From an uncultured Pelagibacteraceae bacterium (lineage in GTDB: Bacteria; Pseudomonadota; Alphaproteobacteria; Pelagibacterales; Pelagibacteraceae), in contig CABZFJ010000002.1 in NCBI GenBank assembly GCA_902524995.1, forward strand, positions 1-64,000: a stretch of 64,000 bases of DNA, in the 5' to 3' direction. Shown here one piece after another: positions 28,765 through 41,842 of this stretch. The notes beneath the pieces were generated by a model. It was not told where the DNA came from. It did no database searches and worked only from the letters and a program-made list of their open reading frames with translations. The position numbers and the translations under genes are program-made. The first letter of the stretch is position 1, and the number at the start of each line of letters is the position of its first letter.

Positions 28765-28841
28765 TGGTGGGCCCGCCAGGACTCGAACCTGGGACCAATA
28801 CATTATGAGTGTACTGCTCTAACCAACTGAGCTACAGGCCC
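28765..28841 (-). tRNA. tRNA with CAU anticodon, probably tRNA-Ile2 (k2C), elongator Met possible
   Basis: Minus-strand cloverleaf of 74 nt plus encoded CCA. Acceptor GGGCCTG pairs with CGGGCCC, D stem GCTC/GAGC, anticodon stem GTACA/TGTAT (one G-T at its end), loop CTCATAA with CAT at 28807-28805, and T stem CCAGG/CCTGG with TTCGAGT. C4-G69 and C5-G68 in the acceptor are known TilS determinants for tRNA-Ile2, which favours Ile2 over elongator Met. The 5' half (28802-28841) is the left copy of the island's 41-bp attachment repeat. Confidence 0.93.
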
Positions 28842-28944: not shown

Positions 28945-28966
28945 GTTGGTAAATCCGTTGGTAAAA
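28945..28966. repeat. Left-end tandem repeat GTTGGTAAA x2
   Basis: GTTGGTAAAT (28945-28954) and GTTGGTAAAA (28957-28966), 12-bp period, followed by a TTTTTATA run. The same arrangement in the same orientation occurs near the right end (41708-41728). Position about 100 bp inside each attachment repeat suggests arm-type recombinase or excisionase sites (inference). Confidence 0.65.
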
Positions 28967-28970
28967 ATTT

Positions 28971-31058
28971 TTATAAACTTTTTAAGTTTTTTTCCGATAT
29001 TCCATTAATCAGAACTTTCTTATACTTTAAAATTCTTTTAGCAGCTTTAAGAAACTTTGTATTTTTTAATTCACTACTTTTTTTAAAATCATAACCATAT
29101 ATCCAAATATCTTTAAGTTTATTAAAGTTTTTTAAAACACTTAGATCTAAATACTCAGAACAAAGATTGTTAATTGCATTTCCCTCTTTGTGTTTAACAG
29201 AAAAATAATTGTAATATCTAAGTTTTTCGAATGACTTAATTTTTTCAAAATTTGGAAAATTGTGTACTTGTAATATTCGGCCCATATAATACTGATCGTG
29301 ATCGCTAGCAGCATAACCTTTATGATCAATATATTCATCTGAAGGTTTTTCATCTTTCAAATCTTTAGGCACAACTACCTCAAAATCTTTAAGTTTTTTT
29401 GGATAAATATTTTTAGGAAATTCACCCATGGGTTCTCTTAACCATGTATGAACATCGGTCGATAACTTTTCTAATTTTGGTAGTTTATACAATGCTTTAA
29501 AAAAAGAGGTGGCTGTATGCCAATCAACAATACATCCATCTAAATGTAGATGTTTCAATTTCTTTAATTTTGATAAAGGTGACCAATCTTTTATATATTT
29601 CATATTTGCCAATACTAAATGTTCAATATCTTTTAGTTTTTCAATTTCTTTGAGAGTTTTAGTATCTCTCAGGTCAATTTTATCAATTTCTGCATATTTT
29701 AATTTTGCATTAATTACATTTCTAAGATAAGAACTTTCTTTGAAGGTTTTATTTGCAATTAATTTTCCTTTTTCACTTTTATTCAAATAACAACCCTTAA
29801 TTCCTTCGACAACTATTTTGACGTTTACTTCATCTTCACCCTCAAAATCTTTTTGATCATAACAGTGTAAATAAACTGGATAGGAGCCCTTGTTCATTGG
29901 AAGAATGATCTTAGTTAAAGAAAAATCAATATCATTTTTCAATTTATAACCATCAAATAGCTCTGATACTCCCGCTGATATTAAATCAGTTGATATTTCT
30001 AATTTCTTGTTACTAATGTCTCTCTTTTTTGATTTATTTCCTAATTTTGATAAATCTAATTCTTGGGGCTCAATATCTTTAATTATACCAATAATGAAAT
30101 CTTCGAATTGCTTTTTTCTAATTTCAAAACCTTCTTTAAAATTTTCTTTGAATAAAATTTTTGACTGTTTTTTAAGTATTTGAATAGCTTTTGGTAGTCG
30201 ACTAGATATATATTCTCCCGAAAGTTTTACATTCTCTTTTATTTTTAAATTAGTTTCCCATCTTTTATAATGTTCACTTTCATCTTTATTCTCTAGATAA
30301 TCCTCAAAAATATATTTAGTTGGATAACAATTTTCATCTAATTGATTGCTAAATAATTCAGTATAAGAATAATTAATCGGTTCCTGATGAGGTTTTAGCT
30401 CTTTGTGAATTACAGATGAACTAAAACTAGACGACTCAGGCTTATTTATCAGACCGTATGAAAATTTTACACTAAATATTGGTGAAGAATTTTGAAAAAT
30501 TCCATCTTTCTTAAAATAATCCAATTTAATAATCTCATTTAAATCTCCATCTTCGTCTAACGTATCATTATTAACACCTAATAAAGATCGTAACGGTCCA
30601 CCAAAATCTCCAACTGCAATTAAACCTGATTTAGTATTTAGATCAAATAACTTGATTCTATTTTCTTTTAATTTACCAAAAAATTGATCATTATAATCTT
30701 CTTTATCCCACCAATGTGATAAATATCGTTGTGTATTTTTAGGATGTTGCGCATATTCTGCAAATAATGCATCGGCGAATATTTTTCTTATTCTATTTTT
30801 AGCATCTACACCAATATAAACAGAATAACCACCATCTGCTGAAGTTCCAAAAGATATAGAGTTATATTTTGATGCATCTTTTTTTTTAAACTCTTCAACC
30901 AGCTCTTTTGCAGGACCACCTATTCCCCATCCAGTTTCAAAATCATTACTTAATCTTTCACATAAATCACCAACTGTAACAGTTGCTGCATCAACAGCAT
31001 TCATTTCTAATAAATAAATATCTGTTATTGGATATGGGTCTCTTATTTTTTTTGACAT
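28971..31058 (-). CDS. Large protein with DUF4241-like region and leucine-rich repeats
   Basis: 695 residues, no signal peptide or membrane segment. The N-terminal part (about 1-220) has a pattern like the DUF4241 family (SFGTSADGGYSVYIGVD, then LIAVGDFGGPLRSLLG). The middle (about 220-400) is charged and helical. From about 455 there are leucine-rich repeats: LKEIEKLKDIEHLVLANM, then LSKLKKLKHLHLDGC, LPKLEKLSTDV and a last one near LKNFNKLKDIWIYG. LRR units usually bind proteins, so a recognition or sensor role is possible. It is the last gene of the island's left operon, 11 bp after the 121-residue gene. Function unknown; DUF4241 resemblance is moderate. Confidence 0.7.
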   Translation of the reverse strand: MSKKIRDPYPITDIYLLEMNAVDAATVTVGDLCERLSNDFETGWGIGGPAKELVEEFKKKDASKYNSISFGTSADGGYSVYIGVDAKNRIRKIFADALFAEYAQHPKNTQRYLSHWWDKEDYNDQFFGKLKENRIKLFDLNTKSGLIAVGDFGGPLRSLLGVNNDTLDEDGDLNEIIKLDYFKKDGIFQNSSPIFSVKFSYGLINKPESSSFSSSVIHKELKPHQEPINYSYTELFSNQLDENCYPTKYIFEDYLENKDESEHYKRWETNLKIKENVKLSGEYISSRLPKAIQILKKQSKILFKENFKEGFEIRKKQFEDFIIGIIKDIEPQELDLSKLGNKSKKRDISNKKLEISTDLISAGVSELFDGYKLKNDIDFSLTKIILPMNKGSYPVYLHCYDQKDFEGEDEVNVKIVVEGIKGCYLNKSEKGKLIANKTFKESSYLRNVINAKLKYAEIDKIDLRDTKTLKEIEKLKDIEHLVLANMKYIKDWSPLSKLKKLKHLHLDGCIVDWHTATSFFKALYKLPKLEKLSTDVHTWLREPMGEFPKNIYPKKLKDFEVVVPKDLKDEKPSDEYIDHKGYAASDHDQYYMGRILQVHNFPNFEKIKSFEKLRYYNYFSVKHKEGNAINNLCSEYLDLSVLKNFNKLKDIWIYGYDFKKSSELKNTKFLKAAKRILKYKKVLINGISEKNLKSL

Positions 31059-31069
31059 TTAATTATTCT

Positions 31070-31435
31070 TTAAGCCCTTTTTGCATTTACGCTCATTAAA
31101 TCTCTTTGTTTTTTTGTTCTAGCCCTGTTTCTAAATGTATTTTCATCAATAATTTTTTTCTCAAATTGAAGAATACTTTCTTTTGTTGAATGTTTATATA
31201 TATCTTTTAAAGGTTGTTTACTTTTACCTGTATGACCAAAAACTAATCCTAATCTTTCTGTTTCTTTTCTTGTTAAAATTTTTGATCTATTATTTTTTCC
31301 TTCGCCTCTAAAATCTTTTTTAGTCCAATTTCTAGGGTAACTATCAATTATTTTTTGTATTTCTTTATCGGATCTAATTTCCCACTGATTAGAACCATAA
31401 GGATTTCGATTGTAATCTCTATTCTTTTTTGTCAT
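31070..31435 (-). CDS. Unrecognised small basic protein
   Basis: 121 residues from the ATG at 31435, which has AAAGG about 9 nt upstream. A GTG at 31444 would add three residues but sits directly on that site. The product is strongly basic and rich in Arg/Lys/Asn (start MTKKNRDYNRNPYG; later NNRSKILTRKETERLG and RTKKQRDLMSVNAKRA), which suggests nucleic acid binding, but there is no cysteine pair or recognisable fold. It overlaps the end of the preceding gene by 17 bp, so the two are translationally coupled. Confidence 0.6.
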   Translation of the reverse strand: MTKKNRDYNRNPYGSNQWEIRSDKEIQKIIDSYPRNWTKKDFRGEGKNNRSKILTRKETERLGLVFGHTGKSKQPLKDIYKHSTKESILQFEKKIIDENTFRNRARTKKQRDLMSVNAKRA

Positions 31436-31697
31436 CTTTTTCACCTTTAAGCATTTTAATTTCGGCTTCTATCATTTCAAATTTATGACGATCACATACA
31501 TAACTAAAGTACTTTAATGTATTATAAGGAAGAAAATACAATTTTAATATTAAATTTAAAATAGGCTTGTCTTTATAATATAATTTTCTTGCACTCGATG
31601 CTAGATGTCTATGTGTCAATGACCATCTAAGATAGTTATACCATTCTTGACGATTTTCTAATCTTTCTTTAATTATTTCATCAAGTTTATTTTTCAT
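31419..31697 (-). CDS. Unrecognised 92-residue protein
   Basis: A small, basic, probably helical protein (MKNKLDEIIKERLENRQEW, then LRWSLTHRHLASSARKLYY). A short hydrophobic stretch (PILNLILKLYFLPYN) is too short and too broken for a clear membrane segment. It starts 11 bp inside the nuclease gene and ends inside the next gene, so it is part of a tightly coupled operon. No family recognised. Confidence 0.55.
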   Translation of the reverse strand: MKNKLDEIIKERLENRQEWYNYLRWSLTHRHLASSARKLYYKDKPILNLILKLYFLPYNTLKYFSYVCDRHKFEMIEAEIKMLKGEKDDKKE

Positions 31698-32409
31698 TGA
31701 CTACCTCAGAGTATCTGTCGGCTGAATTACATATTTTACATTCATTGTATTTACCAGGTATTTGGTTACCTTCGAGTAAATCAATTTTATCAGTTACAAA
31801 TTGCATAAACTCATCCTCATTTCTTTTCAAAGGAAAGTAACTTATTTTCATTTTTTGATTAATTGATTTAAGATTACTAGTGGTAATTTCCTCAGGAGAA
31901 AATTGAATTAGTCCTAAGTGAGAAATAGGCTTTAACTCTGGCCCTCTTAGTGGATTTTCAAAAATTTTGGCATAAGATTCAAGCTGAAATCTATATGAAA
32001 AACTTTTATCTTGATCATCTGTTGTTTTGAAATCTAAAATTCCATTACTCTTCTCAAATTTTACAACTAAATCAGGTTTTCCTTCTAAAATATATTCTCT
32101 TCCTTTATTATCTTTTAATCCCTTTGAAGTAATAGTTGCCGGAATCTCTAATTCATTAAATTCCGGCTGACCTTTTTTTTTTCTAGAATTAGTTATTTTT
32201 TTTGTAACTGTTTTATAAAATTTTCCATCAGGTAATTTATCAGTTATTTCTGAAGTACTTTTATCAATAAAATATGCTTTTTGTTTTAAATCAAATGCAT
32301 TAAATATTCTTGGAAAATTCCCTTTAATTTCAATATTTAATTTATATTTTAGATAGAAACATCTATCACAATCTGCATAATTAAAGTTATTTGGAGCGAA
32401 TTTAAACAT
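31687..32409 (-). CDS. Cas4/RecB-like PD-(D/E)XK nuclease
   Basis: 240 residues. The nuclease core is visible: GKPDLVV with Asp113, DFKTT with Asp126 and Lys128, and QLESYA with Gln142, the RecB/Cas4 order. Cysteines lie at both ends (Cys14 and Cys17 in ADCDRCFYLKY; Cys224 and Cys227 in NECKICNS), in the place where Cas4 and AddB-type nucleases hold an iron-sulphur cluster. Cas4 has one N-terminal and three C-terminal ligands, so a 2+2 pattern is a variant. No CRISPR array or cas genes are present. The start overlaps the upstream 52-residue gene as TAATG. Confidence 0.8.
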   Translation of the reverse strand: MFKFAPNNFNYADCDRCFYLKYKLNIEIKGNFPRIFNAFDLKQKAYFIDKSTSEITDKLPDGKFYKTVTKKITNSRKKKGQPEFNELEIPATITSKGLKDNKGREYILEGKPDLVVKFEKSNGILDFKTTDDQDKSFSYRFQLESYAKIFENPLRGPELKPISHLGLIQFSPEEITTSNLKSINQKMKISYFPLKRNEDEFMQFVTDKIDLLEGNQIPGKYNECKICNSADRYSEVVNEK

Positions 32410-32567
32410 TAGTAAACCTCTGATATATATCGAATTAATTGAGGCTTTGACTTTGATTTTCCAATAATTTTAATTGTTTCATTTATTTCTATATAAACAA
32501 CATAAAAATGTTTATCCTCAACTCTATCTCTAACTTCTTCAACTCTTATTGCATGAATTGTATCCAT
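32409..32567 (-). CDS. 52-residue unrecognised protein
   Basis: A small frame from the ATG at 32567 to a TAA at 32411-32409. Both ends are TAATG overlaps with neighbours, strong evidence for real translation coupling. The product (MDTIHAIRVEEVRDRVEDKH at the start, then a VVYIEINETIKIIGKSKSK strand-rich part) looks like a small alpha/beta unit. No family recognised. It sits between the putative ribbon-helix-helix regulator and the nuclease. Confidence 0.65.
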   Translation of the reverse strand: MDTIHAIRVEEVRDRVEDKHFYVVYIEINETIKIIGKSKSKPQLIRYISEVY

Positions 32568-32956
32568 TAGTTTACACTCCTTTCATCTTGAAGTTGCTCA
32601 TATTTAAACTTTGAAACTACAAGTCTTAAATCATCCATTATTTTAGACCATTTCTCTTCAAATTTATCAGTTGAACTCAACCAGGGTAAATCATCTTCTG
32701 AAAGATCTAACAACTTGATTATTTTGTTATCAATATCTCTCAAAATTTCCTGCCTTTTGCGCGGACTATGTTCAGAAAACAAACTAACAATTATTTGATT
32801 TGCATCTTTATAAGATGAGGTTTTTTGATTCACCAAAGTTCTAACTACTTGAGCCTTTGATAAAGTAAGTCCTGGAGTTAAAGTTGTTGATAGGTCGTCT
32901 ATTTTTTTATAGCAAGTGATATCAATTGCTATTGATTTGTACTTTTTCTTATTCAT
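32567..32956 (-). CDS. Putative ribbon-helix-helix-type regulator
   Basis: 129 residues. The first 45 residues read as a short strand followed by two helices (YKSIAIDITCYKKIDDLS then LTLSKAQVVRTLV), the pattern of CopG/Arc-like DNA-binding proteins. The remainder is helical and acidic. As first gene of the five- to six-gene operon, just downstream of a 10-bp inverted repeat (32971-32980 and 33031-33040), it could autoregulate the operon. An AAGG ribosome site lies about 10 nt before the ATG. The fold is inferred from pattern only. Confidence 0.55.
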   Translation of the reverse strand: MNKKKYKSIAIDITCYKKIDDLSTTLTPGLTLSKAQVVRTLVNQKTSSYKDANQIIVSLFSEHSPRKRQEILRDIDNKIIKLLDLSEDDLPWLSSTDKFEEKWSKIMDDLRLVVSKFKYEQLQDERSVN

Positions 32957-33257
32957 TATCTATACCTTTCTGAACCAAAGGAATAGGTTAAGGAAATGAA
33001 TTTATTAGACCTACATTCCAATAACGAACACTTTGGTTCATTTATTAGTTTATTTTTTCGAAAGGATTATTTTATAACTCTGTACTCTGCTTCGTTTCCA
33101 AGCAACAACTCATAAATGGAAGGCCAATATACACTACAGTAGGTCTATAAAAATAGTTGTATATAGGCCTTCCATTTTGGTTAGTTATCTTAAATAACCT
33201 CTCATATACTTATATAAACTATAATATTTATTTTTCAATGAATAAAAAAATTTAATT
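32957..33257. promoter_or_regulatory. Intergenic control region of the island with two inverted repeats
   Basis: 301 bp without a convincing gene. It holds TGAACCAAAG (32971-32980) facing CTTTGGTTCA (33031-33040), a perfect 10-bp inverted repeat. It also holds a 20-bp inverted repeat with one mismatch, arms 33114-33133 and 33158-33177 (core AAATGGAAGGCC), loop 24 nt. Neither hairpin is followed by a clear T-run, so operators or an RNA structure fit better than a terminator. A 39-codon frame (32996-33115, +) overlaps both and is not called. Confidence 0.55.
33114..33177. repeat. Long inverted repeat, 20-bp arms
   Basis: Arms 33114-33133 and 33158-33177 match at 19 of 20 positions when one is reverse-complemented, with core AAATGGAAGGCC and ATATACA on either side of the mismatch. 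The loop is 24 nt. No other copy was noticed in the window. Confidence 0.75.
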
Positions 33258-33431
33258 TTATTTTTTATTTTTTATTTTAAATCCATTTTTTTCTAAAACT
33301 TTTATAAGGTTTTTAAGCTTAACATCTCTTGGCGTCCTATGATTTCCTATACTTTCAAAAAATATAGGTTTTAAACCTCTTTTTTCTTTTGATTTAAAAA
33401 AGTCTTTTATTGATTGTATTTTTATTTTCAT
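33258..33431 (-). CDS. 57-residue unrecognised basic protein
   Basis: ATG at 33431 to TAA at 33260-33258. The start has AAGGAG 5-10 nt upstream, one of the strongest ribosome sites in the window, which supports expression. The product is basic (MKIKIQSIKDFFKSKEKRG, then GNHRTPRDVKLKNLIKVLEK) with no cysteine and no membrane segment. The NHRTPRDVKLKNLIKVLEKNG part looks like a small helical nucleic-acid-binding unit, but this is only an impression. It lies alone between the left operon and the restriction-like module. Confidence 0.55.
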   Translation of the reverse strand: MKIKIQSIKDFFKSKEKRGLKPIFFESIGNHRTPRDVKLKNLIKVLEKNGFKIKNKK

Positions 33432-33577
33432 GTTTCTCCTTTAGCGTTTTATTTTAAGTCCTAGCAAGTAGAGTTATGTTCTAAATCAGGACTAGTTAAT
33501 CTTATCACACTAAAGACATAATTAAAAATTATATTATTATTTGTTAGATAATTTTCTTAATTTAAAAATTTCAAAAA

Positions 33578-33916
33578 ATGCAGCAGTTAGAACTGTTTGA
33601 TTACAGAAAAGATTATCTTTTTGATAATAAAAATCAGGTTGCTCATTGGTACGATATTCTTAAAGAAACAGAGGACACAATTAGTTATGCAGAACACATA
33701 GATCCTAATAAAGGCTATGCAATAGCAGGTATGGAATATGAGGAATATGTGGATGTGAAAAAAGATAGGTTGAAAGGACTGACTTATGATCAAATCCTCA
33801 AATATTTAAAAAGTGCTAAAAAAGGGGACAGGCTTAAAAAATATAAAGCATTATTAAAATTTAGAAACATTCCTTATGAAGCTGATCTCTTTACCTGGCA
33901 TAATTCTGAATTATAA
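33578..33916 (+). CDS. Unrecognised 112-residue protein preceding the GHKL ATPase gene
   Basis: A soluble, acidic-then-basic protein starting MQQLELFDYRKDYLFDNKN. The internal segment VKKDRLKGLTYDQILKYLKS could be helical. The QLELFDY start resembles short tails and heads that bind replication or repair partners, but nothing firm can be said. It lies 40 bp upstream of the GHKL ATPase gene in the same direction, so it may be the first gene of that operon. Confidence 0.6.
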   Translation: MQQLELFDYRKDYLFDNKNQVAHWYDILKETEDTISYAEHIDPNKGYAIAGMEYEEYVDVKKDRLKGLTYDQILKYLKSAKKGDRLKKYKALLKFRNIPYEADLFTWHNSEL

Positions 33917-33956: not shown

Positions 33957-35495
33957 ATGGAAAAAATAACATCATTAAATATTAGGCCAACTGTAAATTT
34001 ATTAACTTTACTAAAATATTTTAGATATACTGAATGGTATGCATTAGCTGAATTTGTTGATAATTCCATAACAAGTTATTTACAAAATAAACCAAAACTT
34101 CTTCAAATTGATAAAAATTTTAAATTAAAGGTTCGTATTGAATTTTTAGGTTCAGAAATAACAATCAAAGATAATGCTGGTGGAATAAGTTCTGAAAGAT
34201 TTAGAGATGCTTTTGAAACGGGTAAACCACCCCCTGATACTTCAAAACTTTCTGAATTCGGTGTTGGGATGAAAGTTGCAGCTTGCTGGTTTTCGGACAA
34301 ATGGAGGGTTCACACTAAAAGTTTGAAAGAACCGGTTTGGAGATTAGTAGAATTTGATATGAAAAAAGTTAGTGAAAAACAACAAGAAGATATTTCTGTT
34401 TTAGAAACAAAGCTAAATACAAACAAACATTACACGCAAATTACATTAGCAAATCTTAACCATAAACCAAAAGGTCAAACAATTCCAAAAATTAAAGAAC
34501 ATTTGGCATCAATGTATAGACATTACATTGATAGTGATGAAATTGAAATTTGGATAGATAATAAGAGACTATCCTACAGCGAACCAAAATTATTAAAAAG
34601 TGCATACTTTAAAGATATTGAAGAAGGCATAATAAAATCACCAAAAAAAATTACTTGGAAAAAAAATTTTAAATTTGAATATAATAATGGGATTGTAACT
34701 GGAAAAGTTGCGATTCTAGAAAAAGGGAGAGTTAAACAACCCGGTTTTGCAATATTTCGAAAAAAAAGATTGATTTGTGGTACACCAGAAAGTCCATGGA
34801 AACCAGAAAAAATTTTTGGAGCTGGTAACGACAGAAGACAGCAATGTTTATTTGGTGAAATAAACTTAGATCATGTAGATGTAGCATTTTCAAAAAATGA
34901 TTTTATCTGGTCAGATACTGAGAAAGATAAATTTATAAATCTTTTAAAAAAGGAAGTAGAATTTATAGATGATAAAGAGGAAAAATCTATAATTAGACAA
35001 GCTAAAAATTTTTACTTTAGTCTTGAAAGAAGTGATATTAGATCAACATCAAAAAAAGGTCTCGAAAATGCAATGAAATTTATTGCAAAAGGTTTAGAAG
35101 AAACTTCATCCAAAAAATATAAACCTGAGGCTATTCCAAAAAAAATAGACATACCTAAAGAAAGTGATGAAAGGAATGAAATTGTACCATTTGAGGGAAA
35201 AAATTGGAAAGTAAAAACTATTCATGAATATGACGATAATGAACTAGATCTTTTTAAATTTTCACTAGCTGAGAAAAATAATGAGGAAATTACTATTTTT
35301 ATAAATATGAAACATCCTTTTATTCAAAGATTTTTTGGAGATAGTTCACAAGATATTGAGGGTCTAACAATACTATTGTCTTTCTTTTGTATCAGTGAAG
35401 CTATAATAGTTAAGCATGAGGGAAATCCAAAAGTTTCAATATTAAGAAGAAGATTAAATGATATTTTTTTAACAATACCACCAAGAAGAGATTAA
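33957..35495 (+). CDS. GHKL ATPase, MORC/MutL/Hsp90-like
   Basis: 512 residues. Bergerat-fold ATP site: N-box EFVDNSITS (32-40), G1 box DNAGGIS (72-78) and G2 box FGVGMKVAAC (101-110). After the ATPase comes a second domain (KKEYGLFGEINLDHVDVAFSKNDF type; here CLFGEINLDHVD then AFSKNDFIWS), as in the S5-like domain of MORC proteins. The protein ends in a region with KVSILRRRLNDIF. GHKL ATPases of this kind are known next to Z1 genes in a class of restriction-modification systems (Iyer, Abhiman and Aravind, on MutL/MORC homologues in R-M systems). The Z1 gene starts 6 bp later. Probable role: ATP-driven clamp or DNA-scanning component. Confidence 0.88.
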   Translation: MEKITSLNIRPTVNLLTLLKYFRYTEWYALAEFVDNSITSYLQNKPKLLQIDKNFKLKVRIEFLGSEITIKDNAGGISSERFRDAFETGKPPPDTSKLSEFGVGMKVAACWFSDKWRVHTKSLKEPVWRLVEFDMKKVSEKQQEDISVLETKLNTNKHYTQITLANLNHKPKGQTIPKIKEHLASMYRHYIDSDEIEIWIDNKRLSYSEPKLLKSAYFKDIEEGIIKSPKKITWKKNFKFEYNNGIVTGKVAILEKGRVKQPGFAIFRKKRLICGTPESPWKPEKIFGAGNDRRQQCLFGEINLDHVDVAFSKNDFIWSDTEKDKFINLLKKEVEFIDDKEEKSIIRQAKNFYFSLERSDIRSTSKKGLENAMKFIAKGLEETSSKKYKPEAIPKKIDIPKESDERNEIVPFEGKNWKVKTIHEYDDNELDLFKFSLAEKNNEEITIFINMKHPFIQRFFGDSSQDIEGLTILLSFFCISEAIIVKHEGNPKVSILRRRLNDIFLTIPPRRD

Positions 35496-35501
35496 TTTAA
35501 A

Positions 35502-38009
35502 ATGCAGTGGAGACCTAAAACAAATGGTATTTTTTTTTCAAAGTACATAAATAATTTATCAAAAAAAGACTTACAAAAAGAAGATTTAGAGAACTTAAAA
35601 AATGATACTGCAGATGTAATTTCAAAATGTATTAATCCATCTCAAACAGATAGTTCAAATCGACTAACATCAACAAATCTTGTTTTAGGATATATTCAAA
35701 GTGGAAAAACTACTTCTATGGAAGCTGTTTCATGCATGGCTAGAGATAATGGCTTTAAACTTATAATTTTGTTATCAGGGCATGTAACAAATTTAGCAGA
35801 ACAAACACAAGATAGAGTTTACGAAGCTCTAAATATGTTTGGTTGGAAAAGAATAGAAGTGCCTGGTGGAGGGACTAAACTTAATTATGAAGATATCAAT
35901 ATAGCTTTGAAAGATATTGTATCGTCACAAGAAGATGATCTTTTTGATGATGAAGAAAAACAAGCAGTTTTAATTGTTACAATGAAACATCATAAAAGGA
36001 TTGATAAGATTATCCAAATATTCGAAAAAGCTGAGGAAAATGGTATTGATACTTCTAAATTACCCACTTTAATTATTGATGATGAGGCTGATCATTACTC
36101 ACAAGATAGTTTAGTAAGAACTCGTAAAAGAAATTTTCCTGAAAATATAGCACCAAAAATGCACATTGTTGAAAAAAATGAAACTGTAGAGTCTATTGCT
36201 GAAAAATATTGTGTAAGTGAAGATACTCTAAGATACTTAAATAATTTAGAAGAAAATGACTCTCTTGAAAAATTGGTTGATAGCAAACTATGTATAGAAA
36301 GAGCTGAAAGCACAACTCACAGAAGGATTAAAAGATTAAGACAATCTTTAAAGAAGCATACATTTCTAGCATATACAGCAACTCCGATGGCGCAATTTTT
36401 GATATCAACAGTCAATCATTTGTCACCGAAAAGTGGTACCGTTCTAACACCTGGTAAACATTATACTGGTGCACAATATTTTTTTGGGCAAGGAGCAAAG
36501 AAAAAAAATAAACATACAAGATCAGTCGAAAAGGACGAAATTGCTGATCCTTCTATTATGCCAAAATCTTTAAGAAATGCTTTAAGAATTTTTATTATTG
36601 GAGTTGCAATTGGTTTAAAAGAAAAAGAATATGCTCATGGGAAATCTAGATCTATGCTAGTTCACCCAGCAGTTGGGGTTTCTGATCATGCTAAGTGGAA
36701 AGGATGGGTCGACTCCATTATACGTGACGATAAAAAAATTTTTGAGTCGAAGTGGAATAATATCAAAAATCCCAAAACGGTAGTGGATATTTCATATAAA
36801 GATTTAGAAAATGAGTATTTAGGTGCAATTCAAGATTTAAAAGAAAATGGTGGAGAGATACCCATTTGGAATGATGATTTTGTTAAAAATGTTTTAAAAA
36901 GTTTGAAACTAACAACCACAACATTATTTAATGCAGCAGGAAAATCAAACATACCATTTATTAAATGGGGTGAGGATGGAATTTATTCGAGGATACTTAT
37001 AGGAGGAGTTGGGCTAGAAAGAGGATATACAATTCAAGGGTTAACTGTTTCCTTTATCGTAAGAAAAACCGGAACAGATGACACGGTTTACCAAAGAGCT
37101 AGATTTTTTGGATATCACAAAGATTATGTAGATTTTGTCAGATTTTATCTTCATGATGATCTTATTGATTTTTTTCAAGAACAATACGATAACGAAATTA
37201 TTGTAAGGAATAAAATTAAAGATGCTGTCAAAGAGGGTGGTGATTTAAGAACGGATCTAAAAAGAATATTTCCTTTTTCTAGCAAAAATGGTCCCGTGAG
37301 AAGATCAATCGTTGAACATAATTTAACAAGAAGACCAAAAGGATTTATAGCAGAAGATGTAATGTCTCATCACTTAAATGATATTGAACAAGATATTAAT
37401 AAAAAAATTTATGATGAATTAATTAATCTAAAGAACAAAAAAAGTATAACTGAAGTATGTCAGCACAGTTATGCAAAAGCTTTGAGAGATATGTACATCA
37501 TTGAAGATTTAAACTTGAAAGAGACTAATGAGAAATATTTAAAACATATTTTTCAATTTGATGAAGATGCAAAGGATGATTTTCATTTATTTGATGAATT
37601 AACTGAATATAACAATAACCAAAATCTTGATGATTTAAAGTTAGCGATTATAATTATGAATTCTTCTGATGACAGAAGGAGAGGAGTTGATAAAACTGAA
37701 TTCATTAATGGAGAAAGTAGAATACCTATATGTTCTGGAGGTGGAAAAACAAGGCCACACCACAGATTTTTACATTATGAATTTTTAACTCTCCCGGAAC
37801 AAAGATGGATAAAATCAGCAAAAGAATCTTTTATACCTGCTGAGGGAAAAGAAGCTCGCAGAGCTGAGAATATAGCTACTTTGCAGTTGTTTAGATTTAA
37901 TATAGATGATGGGGATAACACAGATAAGCCATTTAAAAAAAATATTCCCTATTTTAGACTTTATTGTCCTAAAGTTTTAGGCACCAGATTTATGGCAAAA
38001 AAGCTTTAG
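35502..38009 (+). CDS. Z1-domain superfamily 2 helicase-like protein with a LysM-like insert
   Basis: 835 residues. Walker A VLGYIQSGKTTS (61-72), LLSGHVTNLAEQTQDR, Walker B LIIDDEADHYS (190-200), motif YTATPMAQFL (291-300), and the Z1 signature GGVGLERGYTIQGLTVSF with QRARFFGY. Between Walker B and the YTATP motif, residues 221-266 read like a LysM unit (HIVEKNETVESIAEKYCVS, then DTLRYLNNL). This is unusual in a helicase-like protein. The TAG stop shares 4 bp with the facing methyltransferase stop. It should pair with the GHKL ATPase; Z1 proteins are thought to move on or remodel DNA. Confidence 0.9.
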   Translation: MQWRPKTNGIFFSKYINNLSKKDLQKEDLENLKNDTADVISKCINPSQTDSSNRLTSTNLVLGYIQSGKTTSMEAVSCMARDNGFKLIILLSGHVTNLAEQTQDRVYEALNMFGWKRIEVPGGGTKLNYEDINIALKDIVSSQEDDLFDDEEKQAVLIVTMKHHKRIDKIIQIFEKAEENGIDTSKLPTLIIDDEADHYSQDSLVRTRKRNFPENIAPKMHIVEKNETVESIAEKYCVSEDTLRYLNNLEENDSLEKLVDSKLCIERAESTTHRRIKRLRQSLKKHTFLAYTATPMAQFLISTVNHLSPKSGTVLTPGKHYTGAQYFFGQGAKKKNKHTRSVEKDEIADPSIMPKSLRNALRIFIIGVAIGLKEKEYAHGKSRSMLVHPAVGVSDHAKWKGWVDSIIRDDKKIFESKWNNIKNPKTVVDISYKDLENEYLGAIQDLKENGGEIPIWNDDFVKNVLKSLKLTTTTLFNAAGKSNIPFIKWGEDGIYSRILIGGVGLERGYTIQGLTVSFIVRKTGTDDTVYQRARFFGYHKDYVDFVRFYLHDDLIDFFQEQYDNEIIVRNKIKDAVKEGGDLRTDLKRIFPFSSKNGPVRRSIVEHNLTRRPKGFIAEDVMSHHLNDIEQDINKKIYDELINLKNKKSITEVCQHSYAKALRDMYIIEDLNLKETNEKYLKHIFQFDEDAKDDFHLFDELTEYNNNQNLDDLKLAIIIMNSSDDRRRGVDKTEFINGESRIPICSGGGKTRPHHRFLHYEFLTLPEQRWIKSAKESFIPAEGKEARRAENIATLQLFRFNIDDGDNTDKPFKKNIPYFRLYCPKVLGTRFMAKKL

Positions 38010-39028
38010 CCTAATTGTTTTTTTATTTCTTTAGAAATTACATCGGCTAATAGAGGTGGAACTGCATTGCCTATTTGTCTCCATTGATCACTGAAATTTC
38101 CAAAAAATTCATAATTATCTGGAAATGTTTGCAATCTTTTTATTTCATTAATTCTTAAAAATCTATTTTTCCAATGAAAAGGTCCCATATTATTTGAAAA
38201 ACTTGCTTGAATTGTCCATGAGGGCTTGTTTGGGGACAGTTTTAATAAAAATGACCAGTATCTAGATCTCCATTTAAATAATGGTTTCTTGTGCCCTCTC
38301 TCTTTTGTAAAAAATAGATAGTTATCACCAGGAGGAATTTTCTTCAGCAAATGTTTATGCTTTGAGCCTGCCATTTTATCTTTATCTTCTTTGAGGGGAT
38401 AATCTAAATCACCAATAGCATCTTTACAATTCACCCAGGGAAGAGAAAATAAATTGTTATCATTATCCTGATTAGAGTGTGTTTGATTTGGAAAAATAAA
38501 TTTTCCTAAATTTTTCTTAAATCCAACACATATAAATCTTTGTCTAATCTGTGGAACTCCATAATCGGCACAATTTATAACTTTATGAGTAATTGAATAT
38601 CCAAGTTTTTCAGATTGTTTTTCAAAGTACCTAAGGGCTGCTTCATGAGGTTTAAAAATAAAACCATGTACATTTTCAAAAAAAAATACTTTGGGTTTAA
38701 ATTTTTCAACAGCCAAAAAGTAATTTGCTAGTGTATGAGAGTCATCATCTTCAAGTGCTCTTTTTTTATTTTTAAGATAGAATCTAGACTTTGAAAATGG
38801 AGGACATGGCGGTCCACCCACAATACAGTCAAATTTAAATTGATTTTTTATGTTATTAAAATCTACTTTTCTGATGTCTTCGCAGATTACATTTTTAGAA
38901 ATAGTATTTTTTTTAAGAGTGAGACATGCTTTATCCCAATTTTCTATTGATAAAACAGTTTTAAACTTATTTTTGCCAAAACCTATATCAATACCCCCTC
39001 CTCCTGAATACAAACTTAAAATTTTCAT
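38006..39028 (-). CDS. C5-cytosine DNA methyltransferase (first)
   Basis: 340 residues. Motif I SLYSGGGGIDIGF, motif IV catalytic GGPPCPPFSKSR, motif VI FFENVHGF, motif VIII QIRQRFICVGF, and motif X QIGNAVPPLL. The catalytic loop reads PPCP rather than the more usual PPCQ. The variable target-recognition part, about residues 195-300, holds PSWTIQASFS and MGPFHWKNRFLR. It would protect host DNA from the nuclease of the module. It is convergent with the Z1 gene and divergent from the nuclease gene (41 bp between starts). Confidence 0.93.
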   Translation of the reverse strand: MKILSLYSGGGGIDIGFGKNKFKTVLSIENWDKACLTLKKNTISKNVICEDIRKVDFNNIKNQFKFDCIVGGPPCPPFSKSRFYLKNKKRALEDDDSHTLANYFLAVEKFKPKVFFFENVHGFIFKPHEAALRYFEKQSEKLGYSITHKVINCADYGVPQIRQRFICVGFKKNLGKFIFPNQTHSNQDNDNNLFSLPWVNCKDAIGDLDYPLKEDKDKMAGSKHKHLLKKIPPGDNYLFFTKERGHKKPLFKWRSRYWSFLLKLSPNKPSWTIQASFSNNMGPFHWKNRFLRINEIKRLQTFPDNYEFFGNFSDQWRQIGNAVPPLLADVISKEIKKQLG

Positions 39029-39069: not shown

Positions 39070-40614
39070 ATGATTTTAGATTTAATAAATTATTCTTTAG
39101 ATCAACCAGTAATAGATTTTGATATAGAAAAAGTTGATCAAAAATTAATAAAAATCAATCAAGAAGAGAATAAATTTATTATTTGTATTAATGAAATTAG
39201 AAGTTCCGGAAAGGGTAGAAAAAATCCTTTTGAAAAAAGAATTCAAATTTCTCCTAGACTCAAAAGACTTCTAATTGAAAATGAAGCAGATGACTATAAG
39301 CCTGTGTTACTCGGTTACGATAAAGAGACAAATACTTTTACTTTTTGGAAATTCGATATTTATATCGAAACAAATACAATGCAATCTTTTTATACACGAA
39401 GCCAAAACTTAAAAAAAGCTCAAAGTGAAGGTTGTGATATTTATTTTTTTAGGAGGCGACAAGCATTTAATAGAGGTATAGTTAATGAGAGAAATCAAGC
39501 CGTTTCTATAAATGCCTTTTTATTTCCATTAGTTATAAAAAATTATAATCAAATATTTAATAGAAATATATTAGAAATATTTAATGAAAAAATTAGAAGT
39601 TGGAATAAACCCTATACAAGAGACGAATTAATTCTTTGTTTAGATTTATACTTTAAAAAATATCCAATAAGTAGAAATTCACCTGAAATATTAGAAATTT
39701 CAAATTTTTGCTGTCGCAATTCAGATTTGAAAGGTTTTGTTCCTAGAAAAAAATTTTATCATGATGACATAGCAAAAAATTTTAGAAATTTTAATGGTAT
39801 TAGCAGAAAGCTTGAAAATATCGATTCTGGTTTAAGAGATGACCTTTCAACAAAACATTTGGCAATTAAAGATACAATTAAAAAAGGAGTTGTTCCAGAT
39901 AAGCGTGCAATTAAAATCTTAAAAGAAAATTATATTATTAAATCTAAGATACTTGATAAAAACAAGCTTTCAGAGGATGCTAAGTTGATTAAAGATAAAA
40001 TTATCTCAAATGACATTAATTTTTTTGTTGGAAATTCTAATTATGTTAAAGTTTCAAAAGAAAGAACAAAAAATAAAATACAACATCAAGATGAGCCTAA
40101 CATACTTTTAAAATTTGATTTAAATCACTCTTACACAGACAGAACTCTTAATCTTGATAAGATCAGTGATCCAATAGAAAAACATAACGCATTAAACAGA
40201 GCCACCAAGCTTCATGAGGAAGTTTTAATGAAATTAGCTAAAAAGTGTGAGTCAAAAGGTTTACCAACTTGGAAATCAATTCATATTGACTTGTATACTG
40301 AATATCAAAACAGAGGAAAACTTTTTGAAGTTAAAACTTTTGACAAGTCAAATTTAGATCAACAAATAAGGCATGGAATTATTCAATTAAAGGAATATTA
40401 TTTTAGATATGCGATGTATAATGAGGAAATTTTAAAAAGTACTGATTTATTTTTATTACTTAATGATAATCCAGAAGGAGTAATTAAAAGTTTTCAAATC
40501 AGATTTTTAAAAGATCAAAACATTACTCTGTGTTGGGTACAAAATAATAAAATTGTGACTTTTAAAAAAGATAAATGGTCTAATACAAGACCTGCTATAA
40601 AATGGCTTCTATAA
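39070..40614 (+). CDS. Probable PD-(D/E)XK restriction endonuclease subunit
   Basis: 514 residues. The N-terminal third has a pattern seen in specificity domains of restriction enzymes (RKNPFEKRIQISPR, VLLGYDKETNTFTFWKFD). The middle holds TRDELILCLDLYFKKYP and FRNFNGISRKLENI, a module also found beside HNH nucleases. The C-terminal part has a nuclease-like order: LHEEVLMKLAKK, then a D in SIHIDLYTE, then RGKLFEVKTF (EVK) and QLKEYYFRYA. This would cut unmethylated DNA. Both flanking genes are methyltransferases, which supports a restriction role. The exact nuclease family is not certain. Confidence 0.75.
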   Translation: MILDLINYSLDQPVIDFDIEKVDQKLIKINQEENKFIICINEIRSSGKGRKNPFEKRIQISPRLKRLLIENEADDYKPVLLGYDKETNTFTFWKFDIYIETNTMQSFYTRSQNLKKAQSEGCDIYFFRRRQAFNRGIVNERNQAVSINAFLFPLVIKNYNQIFNRNILEIFNEKIRSWNKPYTRDELILCLDLYFKKYPISRNSPEILEISNFCCRNSDLKGFVPRKKFYHDDIAKNFRNFNGISRKLENIDSGLRDDLSTKHLAIKDTIKKGVVPDKRAIKILKENYIIKSKILDKNKLSEDAKLIKDKIISNDINFFVGNSNYVKVSKERTKNKIQHQDEPNILLKFDLNHSYTDRTLNLDKISDPIEKHNALNRATKLHEEVLMKLAKKCESKGLPTWKSIHIDLYTEYQNRGKLFEVKTFDKSNLDQQIRHGIIQLKEYYFRYAMYNEEILKSTDLFLLLNDNPEGVIKSFQIRFLKDQNITLCWVQNNKIVTFKKDKWSNTRPAIKWLL

Positions 40615-41670
40615 ATTGTCCACCAAATACTTCACCATTGCCTTACCCATCAATGGAGGTACTGCATTACCTATCTGTCTTTGTATAGATCTTCTATTAC
40701 CAAAGAATTTATAATTTTTTGGAAAAGTTTGTATGGCAGCTATCTCAGGAACTCTTAGTCTTCTATTACTCCAGTGAAAAGGACCAACCCAAGGACCAGG
40801 TTGAGCTGCTATTGTCCAAGATGGAAGATCTTCTTTTAACTTTAATAAAAAATTCCAAAATCTTGTATTCTTCTTAAAATTTGATTTTTTACCATCACAT
40901 AAAGCAAGGTAGTTTTCACCAGGTTTTACCCTTTTTAATTCCTTATAATAAGTTCCAAGATTTGTTTTTTCATGCTCTTCCTCGTAAATATCTTGATCAA
41001 ATTCTTCAATATGTTTTCCAACTGTTTCATAAGGTTTTAAGTTTTTATTAAATAAGTCTGGTTTATTAGGATCATAGTGAGTTTTTTGAGGCTCTTCATT
41101 GTTGAATTCTTTTTTGGAGCCCATAAAAAAAACTCTTTTTCTCTTTTGAGGAACACCATAGTCTAAAGCGTTAGCTTTAACCATTTTAAAATTATAATTA
41201 TATTTTTTTGTTTTTCTCAGAATAGTATCCACTGCTTTTTTATTTGTAGGATGTAAAATACTTTCAACATTTTCAATCAAAAAGCCATCAGGATTTATTT
41301 CATCAATAAATTTGAAAAAATCATCAATACAATTTCTTGGATCCTTAGTAATTTTTCTATTTTCATTGGTTATCCAGTAACCATTTTTGGAAAAAGGCTG
41401 ACAGGGTGGGCCGCCTATAATTATAGTCTTGTTGCCATTTAAATATTTTTCTATTTCTTTAACTTTTGTCTTTTTAATATCATCCTTGATTATTTTTGTT
41501 TCTTTGAACTCTGAATTTAACTCGAGTGTTCGAACAGAATCTTCATCATTATCTATCGATACTTTCAGTTTGATATTATTTTGTTTAGCGCCTATATCTA
41601 AGCCTCCAGCACCAGAAAATAAACTAATAGCTTGTATATTTGTATTTTTCATAATGAGTCGATCTATCAT
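40609..41670 (-). CDS. C5-cytosine DNA methyltransferase (second)
   Basis: 353 residues. Motif I SLFSGAGGLDIGA, motif IV GGPPCQPFSKNG, motif VI LIENVES, motif VIII PQKRKRVFFMGS and motif X QIGNAVPPLMGKA. The recognition region (PSWTIAAQPGPW, VGPFHWSNRRLR) is clearly related to that of the first enzyme. The start could be Met7 (41652), because TATAATG at 41675-41668 resembles a -10 element on top of the upstream ATG. The stop overlaps the nuclease stop by 6 bp. It is the last island gene before the right attachment repeat. Confidence 0.93.
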   Translation of the reverse strand: MIDRLIMKNTNIQAISLFSGAGGLDIGAKQNNIKLKVSIDNDEDSVRTLELNSEFKETKIIKDDIKKTKVKEIEKYLNGNKTIIIGGPPCQPFSKNGYWITNENRKITKDPRNCIDDFFKFIDEINPDGFLIENVESILHPTNKKAVDTILRKTKKYNYNFKMVKANALDYGVPQKRKRVFFMGSKKEFNNEEPQKTHYDPNKPDLFNKNLKPYETVGKHIEEFDQDIYEEEHEKTNLGTYYKELKRVKPGENYLALCDGKKSNFKKNTRFWNFLLKLKEDLPSWTIAAQPGPWVGPFHWSNRRLRVPEIAAIQTFPKNYKFFGNRRSIQRQIGNAVPPLMGKAMVKYLVDNL

Positions 41671-41707: not shown

Positions 41708-41728
41708 GTTGGTAAATAGTTGGTAAAT
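41708..41728. repeat. Right-end tandem repeat GTTGGTAAAT x2
   Basis: GTTGGTAAAT at 41708-41717 and 41719-41728, 11-bp period, followed by TTTTTATA. It matches the left-end pair at 28945-28966 in sequence and orientation and lies about 75-95 bp inside the right attachment repeat. Between these two sites lie all the island genes. Confidence 0.65.
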
Positions 41729-41801
41729 TTTTATAGAAAAAAAAGTCCTCTAATGAAGTTTAATTTTAAACACTTATTTAGGGTATTTTTCTGAGTCGTA
41801 A

Positions 41802-41842
41802 ATTATGAGTGTACTGCTCTAACCAACTGAGCTACAGGCCCT
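41802..41842 (-). repeat. Right attachment repeat: orphan 5' half of the tRNA-CAU
   Basis: 41 bp identical to 28802-28842. It includes the D arm, anticodon stem 5' side and anticodon loop, but the 3' half of the tRNA is missing (41801 leftward is island DNA), so it cannot make a tRNA. It marks the place where the chromosome's own tRNA 5' half was displaced. Confidence 0.9.

What the first reader, a model, noticed from the sequence alone, without database searches (positions are those of the whole stretch)
28971..32956. Compact, coupled operon of small unknown proteins, a Cas4-like nuclease and an LRR protein
Six minus-strand genes, most linked by TAATG or 11-17 bp overlaps, run from a putative ribbon-helix-helix regulator through a 52-residue protein, a Cas4-like nuclease with a 2+2 cysteine pattern, two small basic proteins and a 695-residue LRR protein. 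Nuclease plus LRR recognition protein plus regulator in a defence island is a candidate undescribed defence system. No CRISPR is present to explain Cas4.
Basis: partly seen in the sequence, partly recalled or inferred. Interest (0 to 1): 0.7.

Follow-up and report, generated by a model that had tools for sequence, protein, structure and literature searches.

The report
Swappable nuclease-LRR operon on tRNA island
In an ocean SAR11 bacterium, a six-gene operon pairing a Cas4-like DNA-cutting enzyme with a leucine-rich-repeat protein sits inside a 13 kb island wedged beside a methionine tRNA gene; relatives carry the same genes in other combinations next to restriction systems, so it is probably a mix-and-match anti-virus cassette, although nobody has tested that.

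Summary
The six genes are real, at the stated coordinates and joined as described. They are not a fixed unit. The exact nuclease-92-121-LRR set occurs only here, 1 of 12 LRR loci; 5 of the 12 carry this nuclease family, 4 other exonuclease types, 1 a GHKL ATPase, 2 no nuclease. Against a genome whose first three operon genes are 98-99% identical, divergence jumps at the nuclease/92-aa junction and the rest differs. 35 of 40 congeneric loci have intact tRNA-Met without either mark. Sister islands carry SinI-, AspBHI- and HNH-type restriction genes, C5 methylases and MutL/Z1/DUF4420 (Mza-like) genes. No recombinase was found in the island. The LRR family was seen only in SAR11 among genomes searched; its C-terminal LRR fold is supported, its N-terminal half weakly resembles DUF4241. 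Best reading: an autoregulated, modular nuclease defence cassette with an exchangeable LRR partner. Defence is inferred from company, not shown; two islands contain only the LRR gene, so LRR may act alone.

The parts
28971..31058 (-). LRR protein, 695 aa: C-terminal leucine-rich repeats (about 440-695), N-terminal half with weak DUF4241 similarity
31070..31435 (-). small basic protein, 121 aa; N-terminal part (about 74 aa) conserved, C-terminal part different in L065
31419..31697 (-). small protein, 92 aa, of a SAR11 family; 38 of 45 relatives share a predicted operon with a nuclease-cluster gene
31687..32409 (-). Cas4-like PD-(D/E)XK nuclease, 240 aa, pfam12705, CxxC...CxxC
32409..32567 (-). 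52-aa protein, recurrent neighbour of the nuclease and of 92-aa relatives
32567..32956 (-). putative ribbon-helix-helix regulator, 129 aa; N- and C-terminal parts occur apart in relatives
33114..33177 (.). 20-nt inverted repeat (95% complementary, 24-nt spacer) upstream of the operon; function unknown
33258..33431 (-). 57-aa protein, hinge gene shared with sister islands
33578..33916 (+). 112-aa protein, divergent hinge gene
33957..35495 (+). MutL/MORC-like GHKL ATPase (HATPase_c_3 E=4.3e-16)
35502..38009 (+). Z1-domain protein (Z1 E=1.2e-32; PADLOC MzaC 7.2e-27)
38006..39028 (-). C5-cytosine methylase
39070..40614 (+). MTaX1-domain protein
40609..41670 (-). C5-cytosine methylase
28765..28841 (-). 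intact tRNA-Met(CAT); its first 43 nt (28799-28841) are one copy of the direct repeat that bounds the island
41799..41841 (-). 43-bp copy of the 5' half of tRNA-Met (97.7%), far boundary of the island, beside tRNA-Val and rpoD
28945..28964 (-). paired TTACCAAC sites inside the tRNA-Met end (arm-site-like)
41708..41726 (-). paired TTACCAAC sites inside the far end

Best explanation
The operon is cargo of a recombinase-less, tRNA-Met-bounded SAR11 island whose multi-gene relatives mostly carry restriction or other defence-type genes. It is a modular anti-DNA cassette. Proposed working: the RHH-like protein represses its own promoter (inferred); when invading DNA or a phage product is sensed, the Cas4-like Fe-S nuclease degrades DNA ends, helped by the 92-aa and 121-aa proteins as DNA-binding or docking subunits (inferred); the LRR protein is an exchangeable partner that recognises the trigger or restrains/directs the nuclease (inferred). 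Shown: the genes, conservation of catalytic residues, island boundaries, module exchange, company of restriction genes. Not shown: any activity, any interaction, defence itself.
For: Island: 43-bp tRNA duplication and TTACCAAC pairs at both ends; in 40 congeneric rpoD-site loci the 5'-half duplication and the TTACCAAC pair occur in the same 3, and 35 have an intact tRNA with neither; 0 pairs in 662,681 bp of trxA-site loci. Defence-type company in sister islands: SinI, AspBHI/Mrr, HNH, DUF4420, MTaX1, C5 methylases; island L203 has CHAT and trypsin-like peptidase genes. Nuclease residues intact. LRR with a DNA nuclease in 9 of 12 loci. Of 45 operons of the 92-aa family, 38 hold a nuclease-cluster gene. 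Module exchange: nuclease dS 0.06 but adjacent 92-aa gene dS 0.87 against the same genome L058, identity falling from 0.97 to 0.82 in the 100-bp block that starts at 31704. No relatives of nuclease or LRR in 50,697 phage records and none confirmed in viral-contig scans (the nuclease and 92-aa scans reach close relatives only). Published proposal that pfam12705 Cas4-like nucleases are ancillary parts of several defence systems (PMC5704561, section 8 read).
Against: Two islands (L005, L052) hold LRR and no nuclease. 6 of 10 nuclease+92-aa operons lack LRR. 23 of the 38 nuclease-containing 92-aa operons are on stretches that include FolC, the site where RmuC, a PD-(D/E)XK protein and SbcB are core genes (40 of 40 loci), so much of that association may concern repair rather than defence. 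DUF4241 similarity is weak (best E 0.011) and the N-terminal model is poor (pLDDT 61.8) with no PDB match at Z 2 or more among the 163 chains compared. Far end not always found: L003 reaches rpoD but shows no 5'-half copy. No experiment exists.
Confidence: 0.5

Rival explanations
1. Two separate cargos stacked head to tail: the RHH-52-nuclease-92-121 operon, and an independent LRR gene that sits at the attachment end and acts alone or with core host nucleases. The 11-bp gap gives co-transcription but no joint function.
For: LRR is the only sizeable gene between the island ends in L005 (2.4 kb; besides it only a 52-aa ORF overlapping its end) and, in another genus, L052 (4.6 kb); nuclease+92-aa operons without LRR are common; the terminal slot holds other genes in L086 and L120.
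Against: LRR is in a predicted operon with a nuclease in 9 of 12 loci at two chromosomal sites and in a divergent genus (L053, nuclease 8 bp upstream); at trxA it is placed between SbcB and TrxA (L171 = L051).
Confidence: 0.27
2. A DNA end-processing or repair module, replacing missing AddAB-type functions, rather than defence.
For: AddA: 0 of 109 family genomes over the TIGR02784 cut-off; 98 of 109 have sub-threshold hits, whose listed frames are at most 755 aa against a 1138-position model (only 1 of 14 control genomes passes the cut-off). 92-aa relatives and LRR also sit beside core RmuC/SbcB. Hudaiberdiev et al. leave defence or repair open for solo Cas4 (abstract, PMC5704561).
Against: Patchy distribution, island location, cassette exchange and restriction-gene company are unlike housekeeping repair.
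Confidence: 0.13
3. A mobility, stability or anti-competitor module of the island itself or of a phage satellite (nuclease and RHH serving the element).
For: No recombinase among island proteins searched and none in the held genome, so movement in trans is likely; Cas4 genes are often recruited by mobile elements (PMC5704561 abstract).
Against: No operon gene is common to all islands with these ends: L209 has neither nuclease, 92-aa nor LRR; no operon relatives in phage or viral collections; no attP found.
Confidence: 0.1

Closest known systems
Cas4-like nucleases of pfam12705 (Hudaiberdiev et al. 2017, PMC5704561; abstract, section 8 and passages seen)
   Same: PDDEXK_1 above cut-off, conserved catalytic residues, four conserved cysteines, no CRISPR, defence-type neighbourhoods (that paper names Dcm, Vsr, helicases)
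   Different: not fused to a helicase; 2+2 CxxC pattern; partnered with SAR11 small proteins and an LRR protein
Mza system (name from PADLOC, composition recalled) and CglI/NgoAVII-type restriction with Z1 N-proteins (PMC4267653, passages)
   Same: the neighbouring cargo in the island: GHKL ATPase + Z1 protein (MzaC E=7.2e-27) + C5 methylases; sister island L086 adds DUF4420
   Different: DUF4420 not detected in the window proteins scanned; the nuclease-LRR operon is a separate, oppositely oriented unit
Tycheposons / tRNA-bordered islands of streamlined bacteria (PMC10872708, passages)
   Same: cargo island bordered by a tRNA gene, there too a tRNA-Met(cat)
   Different: no tyrosine recombinase in the island or in the held genome; ends carry paired TTACCAAC sites; islands can be one gene long
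LRR proteins such as SHOC2, internalins, NRC-type NLRs (fold only)
   Same: C-terminal LRR solenoid, Z 9-11.5 over about 140-210 residues
   Different: no NTPase domain recognised; N-terminal half had no PDB match in this test

Membership tests
pfam12705 / Cas4-like nuclease | PDDEXK_1 model above gathering score | tested here: met
   30.5 bits vs 22
pfam12705 / Cas4-like nuclease | catalytic residues D, D-x-K, QxxxY | tested here: met
   D113, D126, K128 in 42 of 42; Q142, Y146 in 41
pfam12705 / Cas4-like nuclease | four conserved cysteines for an Fe-S cluster | tested here: met
   C14, C17 42 of 42; C224 41, C227 40 of 42; the cluster itself is not testable here
CRISPR-associated Cas4 | CRISPR array or Cas1 in the genome | tested here: not met
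   no short-spaced direct repeats in the window; no Cas1 in the held, 82%-complete genome
Druantia (DruK hit) | other Dru proteins in the operon | tested here: not met
   DruK E=2.5e-5 and 0.034 for the nuclease are the only Dru hits among the ten proteins scanned
Known PADLOC defence system | models for the LRR, 92-aa, 121-aa, 52-aa or RHH proteins | tested here: not met
   0 families at E up to 1 for each (library of 2023)
tRNA-integrating genomic island | duplicated tRNA end at the far border; relatives with the tRNA but without the duplication | tested here: met
   43-bp repeat 41799-41841; 35 of 40 relatives without it, some of which have other genes at the site
Tycheposon / autonomous integrative element | tyrosine recombinase in the element | tested here: not met
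   no integrase domain in the island proteins scanned; PF00589 0 matches in G000
LRR protein | leucine-rich-repeat solenoid | tested here: met
   LRR_14 in 10 of 10 homologues, all below cut-off; SHOC2 Z 11.5, rmsd 3.6 A, 167 aligned
DUF4241 | PF14025 domain | tested here: inconclusive
   9 of 10 homologues hit, best E 0.011, only about the last 35 of 189 profile positions; the window protein itself is not among them
Ribbon-helix-helix regulators | RHH domain model or fold | tested here: inconclusive
   no RHH model hit; MobC_2 E=0.026; no fold predicted

The most novel reading that the evidence does not exclude
A SAR11-specific combinatorial immune system: a recurrent small subunit (92-aa family) and exchangeable DNA-binding small proteins are combined with interchangeable exonucleases (Cas4-like, RecB/Dna2-like, RmuC/ExoI) and a new LRR family with a DUF4241-like head as recognition part, shuffled by recombination and spread on one-to-many-gene tRNA-Met islands that have attachment ends but no recombinase of their own.
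Probability: 0.25. Interest if true: 0.72.

Novelty: new variant of a known kind. Interest (0 to 1): 0.5.

Why it matters
SAR11 is among the most abundant bacterial groups in the ocean (abstracts), and in my literature listings I saw no paper devoted to its own anti-phage systems. The island gives a concrete, cloneable candidate and a way to find more: paired TTACCAAC sites plus the 43-bp tRNA-Met repeat mark these islands sharply in the loci tested, and some hold a single gene. If the nuclease partner is truly exchangeable, it would be a natural test of how one recognition or docking protein works with unrelated nucleases.

Tried and rejected
Phage module: tblastn of nuclease and LRR in 50,697 phage records gave no match; viral-contig scans with the nuclease, the LRR alignment and the 92-aa protein confirmed no relative. 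Rejected as far as these collections go.

Phage-encoded attP: TTACCAAC pairs occur in 8 viral contigs, none with the tRNA repeat; the ORFs of three of the eight were listed and read by eye as phage structural or metabolic genes. One viral contig has a similar tRNA-Met, no TTACCAAC pair and no island gene. tRNA-Met genes of many phages match the tRNA itself, uninformative. No helper found.

Nuclease swap at trxA: I first took RmuC/SbcB beside LRR (L051, L054) as swapped cargo. The survey showed RmuC, a PD-(D/E)XK protein and SbcB to be core there in 40 of 40 loci (representatives Pfam-confirmed), so these two cases are weaker evidence of partnership.

Labels checked late: RmuC, Vsr, the PD-(D/E)XK core protein and C5 methylases are Pfam-confirmed in representatives; SbcB is confirmed in L051, L054, L157 and L196, not in L139; two clusters that I had read by eye as MORC/GHKL ATPases (c86, c98) got no Pfam hit and count as unverified. 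L203, first taken to lack defence-type genes, has CHAT and trypsin-like domains.

N-terminal LRR domain: two structure predictions; the N-terminal model is poor and its second look at PDB gave no match at Z 2 or more. Profile search of PDB sequences gave only weak LRR hits (best E 0.012). Pfam of all members gave only weak DUF4241; LRR profile in 240 genomes of the class: own genome only.

RNA elements: Rfam gave only the two tRNAs above gathering score. Upstream stems differ between loci; not pursued.

LRR loci counted as 12: window, L002-L007, L050-L054. Dropped: L055, L056 (partial) and L057 (repeat similarity only). L008-L014 and L049 are other cuts of counted loci, L015-L019 of dropped ones. 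L120 and L226 are one island (G244).

Literature: ten searches listed no paper on this operon, on DUF4241 (0 papers) or on a SAR11 tRNA-Met defence island; that covers only the open-licence library, and only titles, counts and starts of abstracts were seen.
Full report
WHERE IT IS. The window belongs to a SAR11 (Pelagibacterales) genome: close LRR relatives come from Pelagibacterales/Pelagibacteraceae records; the held genome is 1.12 Mb in 47 contigs, 82% complete.

THE OPERON IS REAL. Pairwise dN/dS is 0.09-0.20 for LRR, 121-aa, 92-aa, nuclease and 52-aa genes; for the RHH gene synonymous sites are saturated.

THE NUCLEASE. PDDEXK_1 E=4.5e-7 over cut-off; PHROG and PADLOC give weak Cas4/exonuclease/DruK hits. 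In 42 aligned family members D113, D126, K128, C14 and C17 are invariant, Q142, Y146 and C224 in 41 and C227 in 40. The family is in 51 of 397 family genomes in many settings; operons of the 42 include ResIII, PIF1, HerA-like and DUF4011/MTES_1575 genes (Pfam) and, by clustering, Z1 and Vsr genes. This fits the published view that pfam12705 Cas4-like nucleases are ancillary parts of several defence systems; I read that paper's abstract, section 8 and passages; a word search of its main text for SAR11 and Pelagibacter found neither.

THE LRR PROTEIN. Found in 10 of 397 family genomes, 7 of them full length (G000, G308, G043, G078, G233, G085, G109), the rest partial or repeat similarity only, plus six loci in named records, one of which (L005) has the contig length of G308's. 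No match in the 239 other genomes of a class-wide draw of 240; other classes were not searched except through the pattern scan, which finds close relatives only. AlphaFold model of the whole protein: mean pLDDT 70.8; residues about 441-689 match SHOC2 (Z 11.5), Rsu1, internalins and NRC-type LRRs; Foldseek by itself was borderline (best E 1.2e-3). The N-terminal half stays unassigned: DUF4241 is hit by 9 of 10 homologues, best E 0.011, over a short C-terminal piece of the profile.

THE PARTS ARE EXCHANGED. Predicted operons of the 12 LRR loci (L007 by hand because its LRR frame is broken): this nuclease family in the window, L002, L003, L007 and L053; an RNase H-like/Dna2-like helicase protein, with a PD-(D/E)XK part in L050, in L004 and L050; RmuC and SbcB in L051 and L054; a GHKL ATPase and an RNAP-alpha-CTD-like protein in L006; no nuclease in L005 and L052. 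The window nuclease shares only 25.7% identity with that of L003 and 23.6% with that of L007, and blastp gave no assignment for that of L002, although their LRR is 81% identical (L002, L003) or 94% and 77% in two pieces (L007). So the nuclease was replaced beside a conserved LRR. Conversely, genome G274 (L058) shares RHH, 52-aa and nuclease at 98-99% identity, but its 92-aa protein is 75% identical and everything downstream differs; nucleotide identity drops from 0.97 to 0.82 in the block starting at 31704 and dS rises from 0.06 to 0.87. The regulator is also mosaic: N-terminal 45-50 residues shared with L065, L086, L007; C-terminal part with L002, L050, L006.

THE 92-AA FAMILY is in 40 of 397 genomes. 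Of 45 predicted operons (gaps up to 60 bp) 38 contain a gene of a nuclease cluster, 3 only a cluster that I labelled MORC/GHKL (one of the three, L138, by a label Pfam does not confirm), 4 neither. 25 of the 45 lie on stretches that include FolC, where RmuC, a PD-(D/E)XK protein and SbcB are core: 40 of 40 loci examined, out of 57 genomes with FolC. That site inflates the association.

THE ISLAND. The first 43 nt of tRNA-Met (28841-28799) recur at 41841-41799 next to tRNA-Val and rpoD. Paired TTACCAAC sites lie inside both ends. Of 56 genus genomes with RpoD I fetched the site in 40: the 5'-half duplication is in 3 (L203, L209, L226) and the TTACCAAC pair in the same 3; 35 have intact tRNA-Met with neither, though some have other genes at the site, and two of them (L216, L219) have a 3'-half copy, another island type; 2 have no tRNA-Met there. 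Among 11 LRR- or 92-aa-bearing loci tested, window included, 7 show the duplication; in L052 the TTACCAAC pair was found at one end only; L003 reaches rpoD and shows no duplication, an exception; L002, L050 and L120 do not contain the rpoD side. The pair motif is absent from 662,681 bp of trxA-site loci, including one with LRR (L171). So this is a defined island type whose ends behave like attachment sites. No recombinase domain was found in the island proteins scanned; PF00589 has no match in the held genome, and of 11 relatives searched eight have one match in a frame of 322-325 aa, G063 has three, two have none. Movement in trans is inferred.

THE CARGO. The window island also has a GHKL ATPase, a Z1 protein (MzaC 7.2e-27), two C5 methylases and an MTaX1 protein. 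Of 10 islands with the duplication (window, L005, L006, L007, L052, L058, L086, L203, L209, G244), six carry a C5 methylase (window, L007, L058, L086, L209, G244; Pfam), with SinI and AspBHI/Mrr in L058, HNH_2 in L209, DUF4420 and MTaX1 in L086. L006 has a GHKL ATPase. L203, whose tRNA end was not fetched, has two CHAT proteins and a trypsin-like peptidase, a pairing I recall from immune loci. L005 and L052 hold LRR alone. Guilt by association is good for the island, weaker for the LRR gene by itself.

HOW IT LIKELY WORKS. Shown: operon layout, a nuclease with its catalytic residues, LRR solenoid, exchange of modules, defence-type company, no relatives in the phage and viral collections searched. 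Inferred: RHH autorepression; Fe-S-stabilised DNA-end nuclease; small proteins as DNA-binding/docking subunits; LRR as sensor or director. I put 0.5 on this, 0.27 on LRR being a separate stacked cargo, 0.13 on repair and 0.1 on an element-serving role.

NOVELTY. The nuclease is a member of a known family and tRNA-bounded defence islands are a known kind. The LRR family, the 92-aa family and the recombinase-less tRNA-Met islands with paired TTACCAAC ends did not turn up under a name in the libraries or literature listings searched. New variant of a known kind, of moderate interest until a phage test is done.

Noticed in passing
L157-L196 (trxA-folC site): RmuC - PD-(D/E)XK protein - SbcB beside TrxA/FolC is core in 40 of 40 Pelagibacter-genus loci while no AddA passes its cut-off in 109 genomes; in other genera 92-aa relatives and other small genes are inserted there. 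I recall, without a call, that addAB lies beside trxA in other Alphaproteobacteria.
   Followed up: partly
window 33258-33916: Divergent 57-aa/112-aa gene pair recurs as a hinge between nuclease operon and restriction cargo; also present in island L209, which lacks the nuclease operon.
   Followed up: partly
L216, L219, L086: 3'-half duplications of the same tRNA-Met: a second island type seems to use the opposite end of the tRNA.
   Followed up: no
L203:179-8729: Island with the same end marks carries two CHAT-domain proteins, a trypsin-like peptidase and PDZ proteins: a possible protease-based immune locus.
   Followed up: no
L055, L056: Shortened LRR remnants (413-aa frame) lie within about 1 kb of a tRNA-Phe gene.
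   Followed up: no
window 32957-33050 and relatives: GAAC...GTTC-like inverted sites before the RHH gene differ between loci, possible operators.
   Followed up: partly
L006:4857-6983, L226:5529-8108: Large island proteins with RNA polymerase alpha-CTD and sigma region 4-like domains.
   Followed up: no
L052, L054: LRR proteins of about 1430 aa carry a second, C-terminal half absent from the 695-aa form.
   Followed up: no
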